Below are positions 1 through 56,430 of a stretch of DNA of 56,864 nt, piece after piece. Origin of the DNA: a bacterium (lineage in GTDB: Bacteria > Patescibacteriota > Saccharimonadia > CAILAD01 > JADZBC01). Under the pieces are notes generated by a model, which searched no databases, was not told the DNA's origin, and saw only the letters and a program-made list of their open reading frames with translations. Made by a program: the position numbers and the translations under genes. Numbering within the stretch: the stretch's first letter is position 1; the number at the start of each line of letters is the position of its first letter. The stretch is from the NCBI GenBank assembly GCA_020852295.1, contig JADZBC010000016.1, positions 64,294-121,157 on the forward strand, written 5' to 3'.

Positions 1-1365
1 GCCACCACCATTGGTCGTATACTGTCGCGGGGATGTTGCATCGGGCTGGTTGACTGGGCAGGCCGGCCCACGAGGAGCGACCGTTATAGATACGTTGCCG
101 ACCCCCTGTCCGAGAGAGTTAGTGACAATACCACCAAAGCTCACTTTGTGATTCGCGCCAATATTGCCAGGACATGCCGCAAGCGCTGGTCGGGCGCCGA
201 GTAGAGCATCGGTTAGACGACCAAAAATCCCTTTCTTCGGCTGCTCGACGCGACAGAGTCGACCATCGATCTTGGCATTGACCATAAACTCGGGTGCACT
301 TTGATTGTACGAGATCAGCATTTTGGCGCTCAGACCAGTGCCATACACCACCGCTTTATCCACTACTGATTTAGTATAGTCGTCCCAGTTTTTAAAACTG
401 CCTGTGCCGACATCAGACACCCGTGCAATAAAGTAAAAGCCGCCACCCTCTGATTTGGTAATATCACTATATTCATTCTTATTGTTAAGCTTCGCTATAG
501 TATCCCAGTCTTTTGGGTCCTGAAAACCAATTGAGCCCGGGTTATCCTTATTGATACCCTTCATCGGCAAAACAATCATTGTTTCTGGAGAGATGTCGAG
601 TGAGTCCATCTTCTTACCAGCATTGGCGACGGCGGTTATCTCCTCGTCAGTTTTGCCCTGCTGCATAAGTGGTAGTATCTTCTTCTCGAGTGTAGCTCGG
701 GACAACGTGTCCGCCTGCTCTTGTGTGTACTTCGTGGTACCACCAAAGTAGTCCCAGCGGGTAATCACGAGCATGACATCTTTGTACTCAAGAATCTTAT
801 TGGCGAGTTTGTCTTTGAGAGCGCCAATGCGATACTGTCGTAAAACATCTTCCCGTGGGTAATTCTGATTATTGCTACCGTAAAGCGCGTTGAAGCGGAT
901 GAGCATCGCCCGTATCGTGTCCTCGGGAGTACTGCCCTTTTTGATATCTTTATTTGTCTTGAGAATCTGCTCTTCAATGTCCGTATCAGAGATAGGTACA
1001 TTATTCTTCTTTGCTTCAGACTCCAAATTGGCCTGAAGAATTAGTGTCTTCCGGGTAAAGCCATCAAGGTCCTTGAGGACTTCTTCGTTCTTGGTCAGCT
1101 GGGCGGCACGCTCGTTGATAGCTCGAGCATTTTTAAATTCTGCTTTTGTCACAACCGCAGTACCAACCCGTGCATAGACATCCTTATTGCGGACATACAT
1201 GACCGTGACATAGGTCACAATAACTAAGATGGGCAAAACCAATATAGCCCACCAGCCTAATTTCTTGAGTGGTTTCGGCGCTTTACGTTTACCGTGTTGC
1301 TCTATCTCGCTGATATCTTCTGGAGATGGCGTATTGGTAGCTGTCGTTTGGGTTTTCGGATTCAC
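1..1365 (-). CDS. Membrane-anchored SurA/PrsA-like peptidyl-prolyl isomerase (foldase), truncated at window edge; C-terminal part resembles a carboxypeptidase-regulatory/Ig-like domain
   Basis: Continuous reverse-strand frame from GTG at 1365 to the window edge: VNPKTQTTATNTPSPEDISEIEQ...WWAILVLPILVIVTYVTVMYVRNKDVYARVGTAVVTKAEF...; C-term VSFGGIVTNSLGQGVGNVSITVAPRG. Not in the ORF list because it has no stop inside the window. Confidence 0.65.
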   Translation of the reverse strand, partial: MNPKTQTTATNTPSPEDISEIEQHGKRKAPKPLKKLGWWAILVLPILVIVTYVTVMYVRNKDVYARVGTAVVTKAEFKNARAINERAAQLTKNEEVLKDLDGFTRKTLILQANLESEAKKNNVPISDTDIEEQILKTNKDIKKGSTPEDTIRAMLIRFNALYGSNNQNYPREDVLRQYRIGALKDKLANKILEYKDVMLVITRWDYFGGTTKYTQEQADTLSRATLEKKILPLMQQGKTDEEITAVANAGKKMDSLDISPETMIVLPMKGINKDNPGSIGFQDPKDWDTIAKLNNKNEYSDITKSEGGGFYFIARVSDVGTGSFKNWDDYTKSVVDKAVVYGTGLSAKMLISYNQSAPEFMVNAKIDGRLCRVEQPKKGIFGRLTDALLGARPALAACPGNIGANHKVSFGGIVTNSLGQGVGNVSITVAPRGPACPVNQPDATSPRQYTTNGGG

Positions 1366-22639: not shown

Positions 22640-23533
22640 TTAGGTGTGGTTGACTTTTTTGGCACGAGGCAATTTTTGGCAAGCCGGACAATAATGCGTA
22701 CCACGGCCGGCAACTCGTATCTTTTCGATAATGGCACCGCAGTCTGGACACGGCTGACCTTCGCGTCGAAATACTCGGGCAAATTTCAAATAGCTCCCCT
22801 TGTTGCCATCGGCATCGACGTAGTTCTTATCAGAGCTTCCGCCGTGCGCCAGCGAAAGGCGCATGACATCAGGAATCGCGGCATGCAGTAGTTTGATTTT
22901 CTTTAGGGGTACATCCCCAGTTCGCATCGCCGGATGTATACCGGCAATATGCAAACTCTCGTCGGCGTAGATGTTGCCAACACCGGCCACGATAGTCTGA
23001 TCGAGAATCGCTGCTTTGATAGAAGTATTCTTACGGCGCGCGAGGGCTTTGCGAAAAGCCGCCAGGCTAAACTCGGTACCGAGCGGCTCAGGTCCAACCT
23101 TGCGAAAGAAATCGATCTCAGATATCTCGGCAGTTGGCACCAGTCGCATCCAGCCAAACTTGCGCTGGTCATTAAAAAACAGAGTCGATTCATCGGTGAA
23201 GTGCATCGTGGCTCGGGTACTGCGATCGGGTAATTCGCCCAAGAGGCTGTCATTTGGATGACCACCACCCCAACGCTCGCGACCGATAAACACCAATTGG
23301 CCAGTCATCTTAAGGTGCACACTCAAGCTATAGTCGGTATTTAGCTCGAATAGCAAGACTTTAGCCCGCCGATCGATCTTAGTAATGGTAGCCCCAATCA
23401 AAAACTGACGCACCAACTCCGGATCATTCGGAAAACTCTTAGGGGCATCTGAGCTGACCGACTTCACGATCAGTCCAGGCAAGTGGCGCTGTAGGCCAAG
23501 CCGAATTGTCTCTACTTCGGGTAGTTCTGGCAT
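22640..23533 (-). CDS. mutM: Formamidopyrimidine-DNA glycosylase
   Basis: MPELPEVETIRLGLQRHL; C-terminal zinc finger CPDCGAIIEKIRVAGRGTHYCPACQ. Confidence 0.97.
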   Translation of the reverse strand: MPELPEVETIRLGLQRHLPGLIVKSVSSDAPKSFPNDPELVRQFLIGATITKIDRRAKVLLFELNTDYSLSVHLKMTGQLVFIGRERWGGGHPNDSLLGELPDRSTRATMHFTDESTLFFNDQRKFGWMRLVPTAEISEIDFFRKVGPEPLGTEFSLAAFRKALARRKNTSIKAAILDQTIVAGVGNIYADESLHIAGIHPAMRTGDVPLKKIKLLHAAIPDVMRLSLAHGGSSDKNYVDADGNKGSYLKFARVFRREGQPCPDCGAIIEKIRVAGRGTHYCPACQKLPRAKKVNHT

Positions 23534-23566
23534 AACAACATTATACCATTCTCTCGGAGAATATTA

Positions 23567-23595
23567 TTGACTTTTTAATATAGTTATGCTATAGT
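23567..23595 (+). promoter_or_regulatory. Sigma70-type promoter of the hammerhead cassette
   Basis: TTGACT (23567-23572), 17-nt spacer, TATAGT (23590-23595). Confidence 0.7.
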
Positions 23596-23601
23596 TTTAC
23601 A

Positions 23602-23622
23602 TCGACCGGAAAGCCCGGTCGA
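23602..23622 (+). promoter_or_regulatory. Predicted 5'-terminal mRNA hairpin
   Basis: TCGACCGG aaagc CCGGTCGA, perfect 8-bp stem starting about 7 nt after the -10 element. Confidence 0.65.
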
Positions 23623-23661
23623 CCCCAGGTTGAGGGGATGCACCTTTAGAGGAGGTGAAAC

Positions 23662-23898
23662 ATGGAGAAGTTCTGGGATCGTGTGGTCATGTTCCTGGTG
23701 CTGCTGGTGCTCGGATCAGTGGTGATCGCGGCAATCGCCACCTACTGGTGGCTGATCGCAATCGCACTGGTGCTCGGCGGTGGTGCCTACATCGGCGGTC
23801 GCCTGCTCTGGCGACGACTGACCGGCGGTGGCAACACCAACGGGAACGGTGGCGGCAACACCACCCACTACCACGGTGGCACCCACCACCACTGGTAG
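23662..23898 (+). CDS. Small membrane protein with Gly/Asn/His-rich C-terminal tail (78 aa)
   Basis: GAGGAGGTG Shine-Dalgarno before ATG; MEKFWDRVVMFLVLLVLGSVVIAAIATYWWLIAIALVLGGGAYIGGRLLWRRLTGGGNTNGNGGGNTTHYHGGTHHHW. Confidence 0.75.
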   Translation: MEKFWDRVVMFLVLLVLGSVVIAAIATYWWLIAIALVLGGGAYIGGRLLWRRLTGGGNTNGNGGGNTTHYHGGTHHHW

Positions 23899-24017
23899 TG
23901 ACCGGCGTGTCCCGGCGGTGAAGGTAAAGACGTGCCTGGCAACGATGCCACGCAGCCCTTCCCGCCACAGTGCTTCCGCACAACGAGCCACCTGCTCGTT
24001 CCTCCCCTCAACCGTCC

Positions 24018-24066
24018 GACTTCATGAATGTGCGTTCATGCTGATGAGTCCAAAAGGACGAAAGTC
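24018..24066 (+). ncRNA. Type III hammerhead self-cleaving ribozyme
   Basis: GACU-U^-CAUGAA-UGUGCG-UUCAUG-CUGAUGA-GUCC-AAAA-GGAC-GAAA-GUC: stem III GACU/AGUC, stem I 6 bp, invariant CUGAUGA and GAAA, stem II 4 bp with G10.1-C11.1; predicted cleavage after U24022. Confidence 0.9.
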
Positions 24067-24069
24067 AAA

Positions 24070-26820
24070 CTACTCGAGCTCACCCCAGTTTTTGCCAGTT
24101 TTGATACCAACATCGATCGGCACAGAAAACTTGTGCACGTTGATCATATTGTCGCGCAAGATTTTTGACACAGCGTCTGCTTGTGATGCATCACACTCAA
24201 CGATCAATTCATCATGGATCTGCAGGATGATGTGAGCGCCCTCGGGTAGCCTCTTGGCCACTTTGATCATGGCCAGCTTCATCATGTCGGCAGCCGTTGC
24301 CTGAAGTGGCATATTAACAGCGGCCCGTTCAGCAGCACTGCGGACGATAAAGTTATTTGAGACAACATCTGGACAAGGCCGACGACGACCAAAGAGCGAC
24401 TCAGTATAGCCTTCTTTACGGGCAAACTGCTTAACCGACTCAATGTAGTCCGCCACCCCGCGGCGAATTGAAAAGTAACGGTCAATAAACTCACGCGCCT
24501 GATGGTTGTCCATGCCGGTCGCTACAGAAAGCCCATGCGGATTCATGCCATAGAGAATACCAAAGTTAATAGTCTTTGCTGCGTATCGCTGCTCGGTCGT
24601 AACGTCCTCAGGCTTCACCTCGTAAAGCTGGGCAGCTGTTAGGCGATGAATGTCAGCACCATCCTCAAAAGCCTGGATCATCTCTTTGTCGTGGGCGAGC
24701 TCGGCCGCTAGACGTAGCTCAATCTGCGAGTAATCAGCCGAAACAAATACCTTGCCCTTGGTGGCTACAAAAGCATTGCGTACCAATTTGCCAAGAGCAG
24801 TACGTACCGGAATGTTCTGCAAGTTTGGGTTGTTCGAACTCAAACGGCCAGTCTGCGCTATCGTCTGATTGTAGCTCGTGTGCACCCGGCCGTCGCGCTT
24901 ACTTACCAGCAGCGGCAACGCATCCACGTAGGTGCTTTTGAGTTTTGTGAGCTCGCGATATTCAAATATCAGATCAATTATTTCGTGGCTACCACGCAAC
25001 TTCTCAAGCTCTGACGCTGCTGTGCTGACGCCTGACTTTATCTTTTTGAGATTGTCGGACTGAATCTTGAGTTTGTCGAAGAGCACCTCTTTGAGCTGTT
25101 GAGTTGACGAGATATTGAAGTGCCCGCCAGCCAATTTCCAGATTTGCTCCTGGCACTTGACGATATCGGCGTCAATTTTTGTGGCAAATTTTGCCAGATA
25201 GCTGGTATCGAGCTCCACGCCCTGCAGCTCAATATCGCCCAGTACGGGTATGAGTGGCCACTCCATCTGCTGCGCCACTTCATCGACACGGCCAAGCTTC
25301 TTGAGACGTGGTGCCAATACTTCATAAAGACGCCAGGTGATATCAGCGTCTTCTGCGGCATACACGACCGCCTCTTTGATATCCGCTTCAGCGAATGTCT
25401 TCTGGGTCTTGCCCTTCGGACCAATGAGCTCGGTGATCTCGACCATCTCGATGCCGAGTTCGGCAAAGGCTAATTCTGATAGCGTCTGGGCCCGCAACAG
25501 TGGATTTATCAGATAGTTAGCCACCATGGTGTCAAAGCTGATGCCGGCCAGCTCCACCCCGTGCTGGGCCATGATTTGGTAGTCAAACTTGATATTGTGT
25601 CCGATCTTGCCGATCTTTTTATCACCCAAAAGTGGCTTGAGAGCCTCAAGGACGGCCTGCTTATCGAGTTGCTCGCCAGCAACATGACCTACTGGCAGAT
25701 AGTAAGCCTCGCCTGCTTTACACGAAAAGCTCATCCCAACGAGGTTGGCCGTCACAACATCAACGCTATCCGTCTCAGTGTCGAAAGCGAAGCACTCTTG
25801 TTTTGACAAAACCGCAATGAGATCATCCAATGCTTGCTGATTATCAACACAAATATATTTGGCTTTTTTCAGGTGTTCACGACCAATGCTAGGTTCATTT
25901 TTTTGGACACCTTCATCTGTAAAAAGCTCTGATTGAACATTATTTGTATTCAGACCAGAGCCTGGCAATTTATTGAGCAAACTACGAAAACCTAGTCTCT
26001 GAAATAGATCAAAGACTTTTTTTCGATCGTAACCATCGACTTCTGCGTCACGTAGGTCAAACGGAATATCAATATCTGTCTTAATGGCTGACAGCTCGAG
26101 ACTCAGATAGGCATTTTCTTTGTCTTTTTCTAGTTTTGCACGCAGCGCCGGGCGAATCTTATCAAGGTTTGCATACATAGCATCAAGAGTATTGTACTCA
26201 GATACAAGCTCTGTAGCAGTCTTGTCGCCAATACCAACGACTCCTGGAATATTGTCAGAGGTGTCCCCTTTGAGCGCCTTGTACGTAATAAACTCTGTGG
26301 GTGTGACGCCGTATTTTTCAACCACCGCCGCTTCATCATAGAGTACCGTGTCGGTAAAGCCACGTCGCATCGTGTAGACCTGCGTATGGCTATCGACTAG
26401 CTGAAGCTCATCCATGTCACCCGTCACAATAATAACGTCGTGAGTGCCGTTGTATCGCTTCGCCAGCGCACCAATCACATCATCGGCCTCATAGCCCGGC
26501 TTCTCAATGAGTGGGATATTAAAGGTCTGCACTAACTCCTTGGTAACGGGGATCTGCTTTACGAGCGACTCGTCGATTTCTGCACGGGTTCCCTTGTAGT
26601 CATCATAAATCTTGTGCCGAAAAGTCGGCCCTGGCATGTCCCAGCCCACCACAACATAGTCCGGCTTCAGGTCGGCGATTGCCTTGAGCAGTATGGTCGT
26701 AAAGCCGAATACTCCATTGGTCGGCGTACCATCTTTAGCCGATAGATATGGAATGGCGTGGAAGCCACGATGCAGCAGAGCGTGCCCATCAAATAATACT
26801 AACTTTTTTCGTTTTGCCAT
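24070..26820 (-). CDS. polA: DNA polymerase I
   Basis: 5'-3' exonuclease, 3'-5' exonuclease-like and Pol A domains (SADYSQIELRLAAELAHD; NFGILYGMNPHGLS; LQIHDELIVE). Confidence 0.97.
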   Translation of the reverse strand: MAKRKKLVLFDGHALLHRGFHAIPYLSAKDGTPTNGVFGFTTILLKAIADLKPDYVVVGWDMPGPTFRHKIYDDYKGTRAEIDESLVKQIPVTKELVQTFNIPLIEKPGYEADDVIGALAKRYNGTHDVIIVTGDMDELQLVDSHTQVYTMRRGFTDTVLYDEAAVVEKYGVTPTEFITYKALKGDTSDNIPGVVGIGDKTATELVSEYNTLDAMYANLDKIRPALRAKLEKDKENAYLSLELSAIKTDIDIPFDLRDAEVDGYDRKKVFDLFQRLGFRSLLNKLPGSGLNTNNVQSELFTDEGVQKNEPSIGREHLKKAKYICVDNQQALDDLIAVLSKQECFAFDTETDSVDVVTANLVGMSFSCKAGEAYYLPVGHVAGEQLDKQAVLEALKPLLGDKKIGKIGHNIKFDYQIMAQHGVELAGISFDTMVANYLINPLLRAQTLSELAFAELGIEMVEITELIGPKGKTQKTFAEADIKEAVVYAAEDADITWRLYEVLAPRLKKLGRVDEVAQQMEWPLIPVLGDIELQGVELDTSYLAKFATKIDADIVKCQEQIWKLAGGHFNISSTQQLKEVLFDKLKIQSDNLKKIKSGVSTAASELEKLRGSHEIIDLIFEYRELTKLKSTYVDALPLLVSKRDGRVHTSYNQTIAQTGRLSSNNPNLQNIPVRTALGKLVRNAFVATKGKVFVSADYSQIELRLAAELAHDKEMIQAFEDGADIHRLTAAQLYEVKPEDVTTEQRYAAKTINFGILYGMNPHGLSVATGMDNHQAREFIDRYFSIRRGVADYIESVKQFARKEGYTESLFGRRRPCPDVVSNNFIVRSAAERAAVNMPLQATAADMMKLAMIKVAKRLPEGAHIILQIHDELIVECDASQADAVSKILRDNMINVHKFSVPIDVGIKTGKNWGELE

Positions 26821-55692: not shown

Positions 55693-56430
55693 ATGGATGC
55701 ACCTCAAGAACCAAAGCAGATGTCGTTCGTCGCATCGTTCTTCTACATCATGCTGTGGATGATCGGAGTGGTGATCGGCTGGCCCATCACCTTGCTGCTG
55801 CGGCGCAAGCCCCTGCTGCAAAAGGTGGTGGTCGTACTGATCGGCTGTGTGGTCTTCGGCACCGTCTACCTGACCAGTCGGGACAACATTCACCAAGACC
55901 TCGCCAGAGAGCAGGCCGCGATAGACAGCGTGCAGCGCAGCAACGACGACATCGAGCAGCGCAACGCCGCTGCGCGACGGGCGTGGATCCCAGTGGAAGC
56001 CAACTTCAATCGGTTCGTCACCGAGAACTCCAGCGGCAATCGCGTACCCCTCTTCACCTTCTACGACCCGGTGGCGACCAAGGATCAGGACCTTGTCGTC
56101 AAGGATGTGGACAGCATCTCCGTCGATCAAGACGGCCGGATGTACCTGAAGATGTGGGTGTCACGCGATCGCACAGAAGCCGACGGCGGCGGATGGACCT
56201 ACTACACGGCCGAGCCGAACTGGCTGTGGGATGAGCCGCTCAAGGAGGTTCCGGAAGCTACCCAACGAAGCTTCTCGCCGTACTGGAACGCCCTCTGGGC
56301 TGCTGGTGCGGCAGCCTGGGTCTACTACTGGCTGATGAAGTGGCTCTTCTGGTCAGCCGAGCAAGCACGTCAGTCGCGGGCTGCCAACCTGGCCATGCGT
56401 GCTGCGAAAGCTGAAGCAGCCAAGGGTTGA
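55693..56430 (+). CDS. Hypothetical membrane protein (245 aa), GC-rich cassette
   Basis: TM helices at both ends (FFYIMLWMIGVVIGWPITLLL; VVVVLIGCVVFGTVYL; ALWAAGAAAWVYYWLMKWLFW). Confidence 0.7.
   Translation: MDAPQEPKQMSFVASFFYIMLWMIGVVIGWPITLLLRRKPLLQKVVVVLIGCVVFGTVYLTSRDNIHQDLAREQAAIDSVQRSNDDIEQRNAAARRAWIPVEANFNRFVTENSSGNRVPLFTFYDPVATKDQDLVVKDVDSISVDQDGRMYLKMWVSRDRTEADGGGWTYYTAEPNWLWDEPLKEVPEATQRSFSPYWNALWAAGAAAWVYYWLMKWLFWSAEQARQSRAANLAMRAAKAEAAKG

What the first reader, a model, noticed from the sequence alone, without database searches (positions are those of the whole stretch)
23567..24066. mRNA unit apparently protected at both ends: 5' hairpin at +1 and hammerhead-generated 3' end
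Promoter TTGACT-17-TATAGT predicts initiation around 23602, exactly where a perfect 8-bp hairpin (TCGACCGG/CCGGTCGA) begins. After the ORF come two further hairpins (23933-23954 and AACGAGC/GCTCGTT 23982-24000), then the hammerhead in place of an obvious U-tract terminator. A structured 5' end is expected to hinder 5'-3' RNase J and a 2',3'-cyclic phosphate could hinder 3' exonucleases such as PNPase; both enzymes are encoded in this window. The proposal is a long-lived, self-processed transcript.
Basis: inference. Interest (0 to 1): 0.82.

Follow-up and report, generated by a model that had tools for sequence, protein, structure and literature searches.

The report
Hammerhead-tailed mRNAs with paired ends
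In this tiny parasitic-type bacterium and many of its relatives, small orphan genes seem to be copied into messenger RNAs that start with a hairpin, pair their two ends together, and have their tail cut to size by a built-in hammerhead ribozyme, which would give bacterial hammerheads a testable job in making durable messages.

Summary
The window has an extended promoter (TTGACT-17-TATAGT), a perfect 8-bp hairpin at the predicted +1 (23602-23622), a 78-aa orphan ORF, and a type III hammerhead ending at 24066, with no intrinsic terminator nearby.

The layout recurs. A model built from 10 hammerheads found matches in 97 of 394 genomes of the class (Saccharimonadia), up to 14 per genome, often in head-to-tail arrays. 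Ribozyme stems covary, U16.1 is invariant and H17 is never G. In 39 of 102 units the segment just before the ribozyme is exactly complementary (at least 11 nt) to an upstream stretch, usually the 5' leader, against 0.9 expected. Hairpin-at-+1 is also conserved. Cargo ORFs are unrelated, GC3-rich and more folded than synonymous-codon shuffles. Other CPR and some viral contigs carry the ribozyme, usually after a local hairpin.

Architecture: strongly supported. Stabilisation against RNase J and PNPase: plausible, not shown. RtcB and RNA ligase are absent in 24 of 24 genomes, arguing against enzymatic circularisation. No RNA data exist here.

The parts
23567..23595 (+). Extended sigma-70-type promoter TTGACT-17-TATAGT (TG before -10)
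   Evidence: promoters of score >=12 lie within 150 nt 5' of the closing helix in 67% of units vs 7% of random segments
23602..23622 (+). 5' hairpin TCGACCGG-AAAGC-CCGGTCGA at the predicted transcription start
   Evidence: in 27 leaders the first paired base is within 3 nt of the predicted +1 in 96% vs 55% of shuffles
23628..23638 (+). 5' strand of the end-closing helix (GGTTGAGGGGA)
23641..23657 (+). Local hairpin CACCTTT-AGA-GGAGGTG that covers the Shine-Dalgarno AGGAGG (23650-23655)
   Evidence: fold; SD sequestration is not general among units
23662..23898 (+). Orphan ORF, 78 aa, hydrophobic N-terminal part and Gly/Asn/His-rich C-terminal tail; GC3 0.81
23933..23954 (+). 3' UTR hairpin (imperfect)
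   Evidence: predicted fold
23982..24000 (+). 3' UTR hairpin AACGAGC/GCTCGTT
24003..24013 (+). 3' strand of the end-closing helix (TCCCCTCAACC), ends 4 nt before hammerhead stem III
24018..24066 (+). Type III hammerhead ribozyme: stem III 24018-24021/24063-24066, H17 = U 24022, predicted cleavage 24022/24023, stem I 24023-24028/24035-24040, core CUGAUGA 24041-24047, stem II 24048-24051/24056-24059, GAAA 24060-24063

Best explanation
The stretch is a self-contained mRNA unit with closed ends. RNA polymerase starts at or next to a hairpin; the leader then holds one strand of a 10-16-bp helix whose other strand lies just upstream of a type III hammerhead. After the ORF is copied, the ends pair, the hammerhead cuts a few nucleotides 3' of that helix, and the message is released with a structured 5' end and a defined 3' end carrying a 2',3'-cyclic phosphate, without a terminator U-tail. 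Shown by sequence comparison: the promoter, hairpin, closing helix and a hammerhead with all catalytic residues, conserved across the class around unrelated ORFs. Inferred: cleavage in the cell, and that the purpose is a long-lived mRNA that resists 5'-3' decay (RNase J) and 3'-5' decay (PNPase).
For: Hammerhead family: 97/394 class genomes, 62/153 genera. 103 distinct sequences: 95.9% of cells paired, covariation 0.755 vs 0.234 shuffled and at most 0.13 when slid. H17 is C/U/A and never G, U16.1 in 103/103. Closing helix: exact match >=11 nt in 39/102 vs 0.9 expected, >=12 nt in 32 vs 0.35; present in the unconstrained full-length fold of 25/34 units, mean z -6.9; about 20 different helix sequences. 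Start-site hairpins 96% vs 55% shuffled, leader z -3.0. Coding regions are more folded than synonymous-codon shuffles (mean z -1.9 vs -0.44 for ordinary own-genome genes, P 3e-4). Ordinary own-genome genes show no end pairing above chance. RNase J and PNPase are encoded.
Against: No RNA-seq, 3'-end or half-life data. The thermodynamic fold of the isolated window hammerhead prefers a misfold (-13.8 vs -10.8 kcal/mol, tertiary contacts ignored), in which GTCC at 24014-24017 competes with stem II. Over half of the units have no exact helix of >=11 nt (loci cut at 1.5 kb explain only some). The second hammerhead of this genome (G000:C9) has a local hairpin and no detected closing helix. After cleavage about 9 nt stay single-stranded at the 3' end. 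High-GC3 genes without a hammerhead are at least as structured, so structure alone does not need the ribozyme. About 20% of units have a terminator-like site within 220 nt upstream of the ribozyme (7% shuffled).
Confidence: 0.55

Rival explanations
1. Translational switch: end pairing mainly controls ribosome access (as in hok or icaR mRNAs), and ribozyme cleavage changes the fold and so the translation state.
For: In a subset of units the 5' strand of the closing helix is the ribosome-binding site itself (GTAAGGAGA with TCTCCTTAC in L054, L056, L104). In the window a local hairpin covers the SD.
Against: In the window and the large TGACAAGCAGACA group the helix strand is not the SD. SD accessibility in units equals that of ordinary genes (0.48 vs 0.46).
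Confidence: 0.16
2. 3'-end maker or insulator: the hammerhead only replaces a terminator or separates neighbouring units, and protection of the message is a by-product.
For: No terminator in the window; the unit runs head-on into polA, whose stop codon begins 4 nt past the ribozyme; in arrays the next promoter follows directly (same-strand promoters within 150 nt downstream in 18% vs 2% shuffled). In other CPR a local hairpin precedes the ribozyme.
Against: Cleavage does not by itself stop the polymerase; this does not explain the conserved closing helix or start-site hairpin.
Confidence: 0.14
3. Mobile or phage-derived cassette: the unit is a remnant of a phage or retrozyme-like element in which the ribozyme serves element replication or transcript processing.
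For: Related hammerheads occur in IMG/VR contigs; some cargo matches phage families, e.g. two Tad4 anti-Thoeris proteins; the unit sits at a site that is only about 7 nt wide between polA and mutM in a relative.
Against: Single ribozyme per unit, own promoter, no integrase or transposase in the unit itself; cargo-independent conservation of closing helix and hairpin points to a function in the mRNA.
Confidence: 0.1
4. Circular mRNA: the paired ends bring the cyclic-phosphate 3' end to the 5' end for ligation.
For: Geometry: ends are held together by the helix.
Against: RtcB 0/24 genomes and RNA_ligase 0/24 genomes, including ribozyme-rich ones. The 5' end is made by a promoter, so it should carry a triphosphate and not the 5'-OH needed; no second ribozyme at the 5' end was found by Rfam.
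Confidence: 0.05

Closest known systems
Type III hammerhead ribozyme (Rfam RF00008) in prokaryotes (Perreault et al. 2011, PMC3088659; review PMC6155905)
   Same: Core, three stems, cleavage-site rule; prokaryotic hammerheads were already reported next to small non-conserved ORFs and in tandem around single genes, with roles called an open question.
   Different: Here a distinct, near-uniform CPR lineage (stem II mostly GTCC-AAAA-GGAC, loop I TGNGNN); the window member falls below Rfam's cut-off. It sits at a fixed place after an end-closing helix in mRNAs with a start-site hairpin.
5'-3' UTR pairing in icaR mRNA of Staphylococcus aureus (PMC3868564) and hok mRNA of plasmid R1
   Same: 3' UTR pairs with the 5' leader of the same mRNA; affects translation and decay.
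   Different: There the 3' end is made by a terminator or nuclease and the SD region is bound; here a ribozyme makes the end and in most units, including the window, the SD is not part of the helix.
mRNAs stabilised by a 5' stem-loop (ompA leader type; from general knowledge)
   Same: Hairpin at or near +1 expected to slow 5'-end-dependent decay.
   Different: Combined with end closure and a ribozyme-made 3' end.
Retrozymes, viroid-like RNAs and obelisks with hammerheads (general knowledge)
   Same: Hammerhead plus extensively self-paired RNA.
   Different: DNA-encoded with its own promoter, one ribozyme per unit, no known RNA ligase in the genome, no evidence of RNA replication.

Membership tests
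Type III hammerhead ribozyme | Core CUGAUGA ... GAAA with A15.1-U16.1 pair | tested here: met
   Window sequence; U16.1-A15.1 in 103/103
Type III hammerhead ribozyme | H17 is not G | tested here: met
   U in the window; C 69, U 19, A 15 in the family
Type III hammerhead ribozyme | Three helices, stem III open, supported by covariation | tested here: met
Type III hammerhead ribozyme | Recognised by the Rfam covariance model | tested here: inconclusive
   E 5.6e-6, 35.6 bits, but below the curated gathering score 48.5
Type III hammerhead ribozyme | Self-cleavage activity | not testable with these tools
   needs in vitro transcription
hok/icaR-type 5'-3' UTR translational control | 3' UTR pairs with the Shine-Dalgarno region | tested here: not met
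   Window: helix strand 23628-23638, SD 23650-23655. Met only in a subset of other units (L054, L056, L104)
Intrinsic (Rho-independent) terminator | GC hairpin followed by a U tract | tested here: not met
   0 found in 23300-24400
Retrozyme / circular RNA element | Two ribozymes or tandem dimers allowing excision of a 5'-OH monomer, and a ligase | tested here: not met
   One hammerhead in the unit; RtcB and RNA_ligase absent

The most novel reading that the evidence does not exclude
CPR bacteria use a general class of closed-end, ribozyme-finished mRNAs as stored or transferable messages: durable transcripts for host-directed proteins (cargo includes anti-Thoeris Tad4-like proteins and a stand-alone RNA polymerase alpha-CTD domain) that survive a host-free stage or even act inside the host cell.
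Probability: 0.1. Interest if true: 0.95.

Novelty: new variant of a known kind. Interest (0 to 1): 0.78.

Why it matters
The role of bacterial hammerhead ribozymes has been called an open question (PMC6155905). A conserved place and partner structure (start-site hairpin, end-closing helix, ribozyme) across dozens of genera turns it into a direct test: does the ribozyme define the 3' end of long-lived mRNAs? It would also reveal a new way to end and protect bacterial messages, in a radiation whose gene regulation is almost unknown, and flag a large set of orphan, possibly host-directed genes by an RNA signature that standard annotation can miss because it falls below Rfam's cut-off.

Tried and rejected
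Circularisation by RtcB or a T4-type RNA ligase: no gene in 24 genomes. A second ribozyme or other known RNA at the 5' end: none by Rfam. ORF-specific partnership: the 78-aa ORF has no clear relatives in 394 class genomes and no Pfam, NCBIfam or PHROG match. General RBS sequestration: SD accessibility equal to ordinary genes. End pairing as a property of all high-GC3 genes: 2 of 24 at >=9 nt, little above shuffles. Codon usage as simple high expression: own EF-Tu, RpoB, RpoC, EF-G have GC3 0.50-0.55, units 0.71. A promoter-restricted duplex-energy test was less clean (43/86 at P<=0.05) because long bulged duplexes give a high background. Literature searches for hammerheads together with Patescibacteria, Saccharibacteria or CPR gave no relevant paper in the held library; subscription papers and preprints are mostly not covered.

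Full report
What is in the sequence. The promoter TTGACT-17-TATAGT has a TG extension; a start about 7 nt after the -10 falls on 23602, where the perfect hairpin TCGACCGG-AAAGC-CCGGTCGA begins. The ORF (23662-23898, 78 aa) has a good SD (AGGAGG, 23650-23655). Two 3' UTR hairpins follow, then a hammerhead ending at 24066. No terminator-like site lies in 23300-24400 on either strand. RNase J and PNPase are indeed in the window. The hammerhead scores 35.6 bits with Rfam's type III model (E 5.6e-6) but below the curated cut-off of 48.5, so routine annotation misses it.

The segment 24003-24013 (TCCCCTCAACC), ending 4 nt before hammerhead stem III, is exactly complementary to 23628-23638 (GGTTGAGGGGA), 5 nt after the 5' hairpin. 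The predicted fold of the whole transcript contains this helix and is far more stable than shuffles (z -5.6). So the two ends of the message are expected to pair with each other, with the ribozyme cutting just outside.

It is a family. A DNA search of 60 relatives found near-identical hammerhead cores in about ten genomes, each downstream of a different ORF. A covariance model from ten of them found matches in 97 of 394 genomes of the class and 62 of 153 genera, up to 14 in one genome, often as head-to-tail arrays about 1 kb apart. Over 103 distinct hammerheads, stems I and III vary freely but stay paired (95.9% of cells over all three stems; covariation 0.755 against 0.234 shuffled), U16.1 is invariant and the cleavage-site base is C, U or A but never G. 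These are the marks of selection for catalysis, although cleavage itself was not tested.

The layout is conserved, the cargo is not. For 102 units I asked whether the 28 nt before the hammerhead match an upstream stretch by exact complementarity. At least 11 nt: 39 units, 0.9 expected from dinucleotide shuffles; at least 12 nt: 32 against 0.35. The helix has about 20 different sequences, e.g. TGACAAGCAGACA (many units), TTTAACAAGAAGAC, GCACCAACACATCC, CCGCAGATGTTG, GTAAGGAGA. Its 5' strand lies a median 37 nt after the predicted start. A strong promoter is within 150 nt upstream in 67% (7% for random segments of the same units), and in 27 leaders with a clear promoter the first paired base is within 3 nt of +1 in 96% (55% shuffled; leader z -3.0). 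In 25 of 34 units the helix appears in the unconstrained full-length fold. Ordinary genes of the window's own genome show no such end pairing above chance. Units share ancestry, so these counts are not independent events, but sequence change with retained pairing argues for selection on the helix.

Other members. In other CPR lineages (Parcubacteria, Kaiserbacteria, Shapirobacteria and others) and in 56 IMG/VR stretches, the same kind of hammerhead is often preceded directly by a local stem-loop, and the long-range helix is hardly enriched in other CPR (2 of 39 against 0.6). The second hammerhead of the window's genome, behind a long GC-rich ORF beside groES, is of this local-hairpin kind. So a structured element immediately before the ribozyme seems to be the general rule, and end closure the Saccharimonadia version of it.

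Cargo. The ORFs are mostly orphans. Recognisable ones include two Tad4-like anti-Thoeris proteins, SPFH proteins, DUF4419, DUF2807, a ThiF-like protein, a Nudix protein, GH113, and a protein with an RNA polymerase alpha-CTD domain. The window ORF has no convincing relative. Cargo GC3 is 0.71 against 0.49-0.52 for neighbours, higher in 57 of 62 pairs and above the own genome's highly expressed genes. With protein and codon counts held fixed, unit coding regions still fold more strongly than synonymous shuffles (z -1.9, ordinary genes -0.44); about 20 high-GC3 genes of the own genome, all but one without a ribozyme, do so too (z -2.6). Extra mRNA structure is therefore a property of a wider gene class, of which hammerhead units are a part.

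Site. polA and mutM are neighbours in most relatives of the order that could be read. In one relative the gap is about 7 nt; in the window the 536-nt gap holds the unit in the opposite orientation, ending 4 nt from polA's stop codon; other relatives have other small ORFs there. The unit thus looks like a labile gain at a variable site.

How it most likely works. Transcription starts at the hairpin. Once the 3' UTR is made, the ends pair, the ribozyme folds and cuts at 24022/24023. The mRNA keeps a structured 5' end and a defined 3' end with a 2',3'-cyclic phosphate, and it lacks the U tail of an intrinsic terminator. Resistance to RNase J and PNPase follows from general knowledge of these enzymes and is inferred, not shown. 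Points against: an isolated misfold of the window ribozyme is 3 kcal/mol better than the active fold, some 9 nt stay single-stranded at the 3' end, and more than half of the units lack an exact long helix by my test. Rivals are translation control (likely for a subset where the helix strand is the RBS), a pure 3'-end maker or insulator, a phage-derived cassette, and a circular mRNA. The last is unlikely because neither RtcB nor an RNA ligase was found in 24 genomes and the 5' end comes from a promoter.

Relation to known things. Prokaryotic hammerheads next to small non-conserved ORFs, and in tandem around single genes, were described before and their role called open (PMC3088659, PMC6155905). 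Pairing of 5' and 3' UTRs is known from icaR (PMC3868564) and hok (general knowledge). I found no paper in the held library that joins hammerheads with CPR bacteria. The combination is a new variant of known parts rather than a new kind of ribozyme.

Noticed in passing
L288-L306 (G000:C9), e.g. C9 143032-143586, 160306-160968, 223434-224363, 253294-254598; window 55693-56430: About 20 genes of the own genome have outlying GC3 (0.69-0.93, genome mean 0.54), mostly with own promoters and intrinsic terminators, and coding regions folded beyond synonymous shuffles; they look like a class of alien or specially expressed genes.
   Followed up: partly
L235, L237, L239, L242, L248, L283 (IMG/VR contigs): Viral hammerheads are preceded by a recurrent palindromic hairpin GTGTCTTCAAAGACAC or close variants, suggesting a phage 3'-end module of hairpin plus hammerhead.
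   Followed up: partly
L049 (280-aa ORF) and L081 (135-aa ORF): Hammerhead-unit cargo with strong matches to Tad4, a Type I Thoeris inhibitor, in genomes of Saccharimonadia.
   Followed up: partly
L063 unit with hammerhead at 1213-1271 (-): Cargo protein with a stand-alone RNA polymerase alpha C-terminal domain.
   Followed up: no
L054, L056, L104: Arrays of paralogous two-gene units in which the 3' strand of the closing helix is an exact anti-Shine-Dalgarno (TCTCCTTAC) to the unit's own RBS.
   Followed up: partly
G000:C9 about 252500-254700: A repeat of about 100 nt (GGCCACTGGGGCC...GATCCGATACGTTAATTCGGGTCACCACCCAAG...) lies beside two high-GC3 genes, perhaps a cassette boundary.
   Followed up: no
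leaders of L033, L061, L062, L058, L096: A second long leader hairpin CACAAGGTGAG...CTCATCTTGTG recurs directly after the closing-helix strand; function unknown.
   Followed up: no
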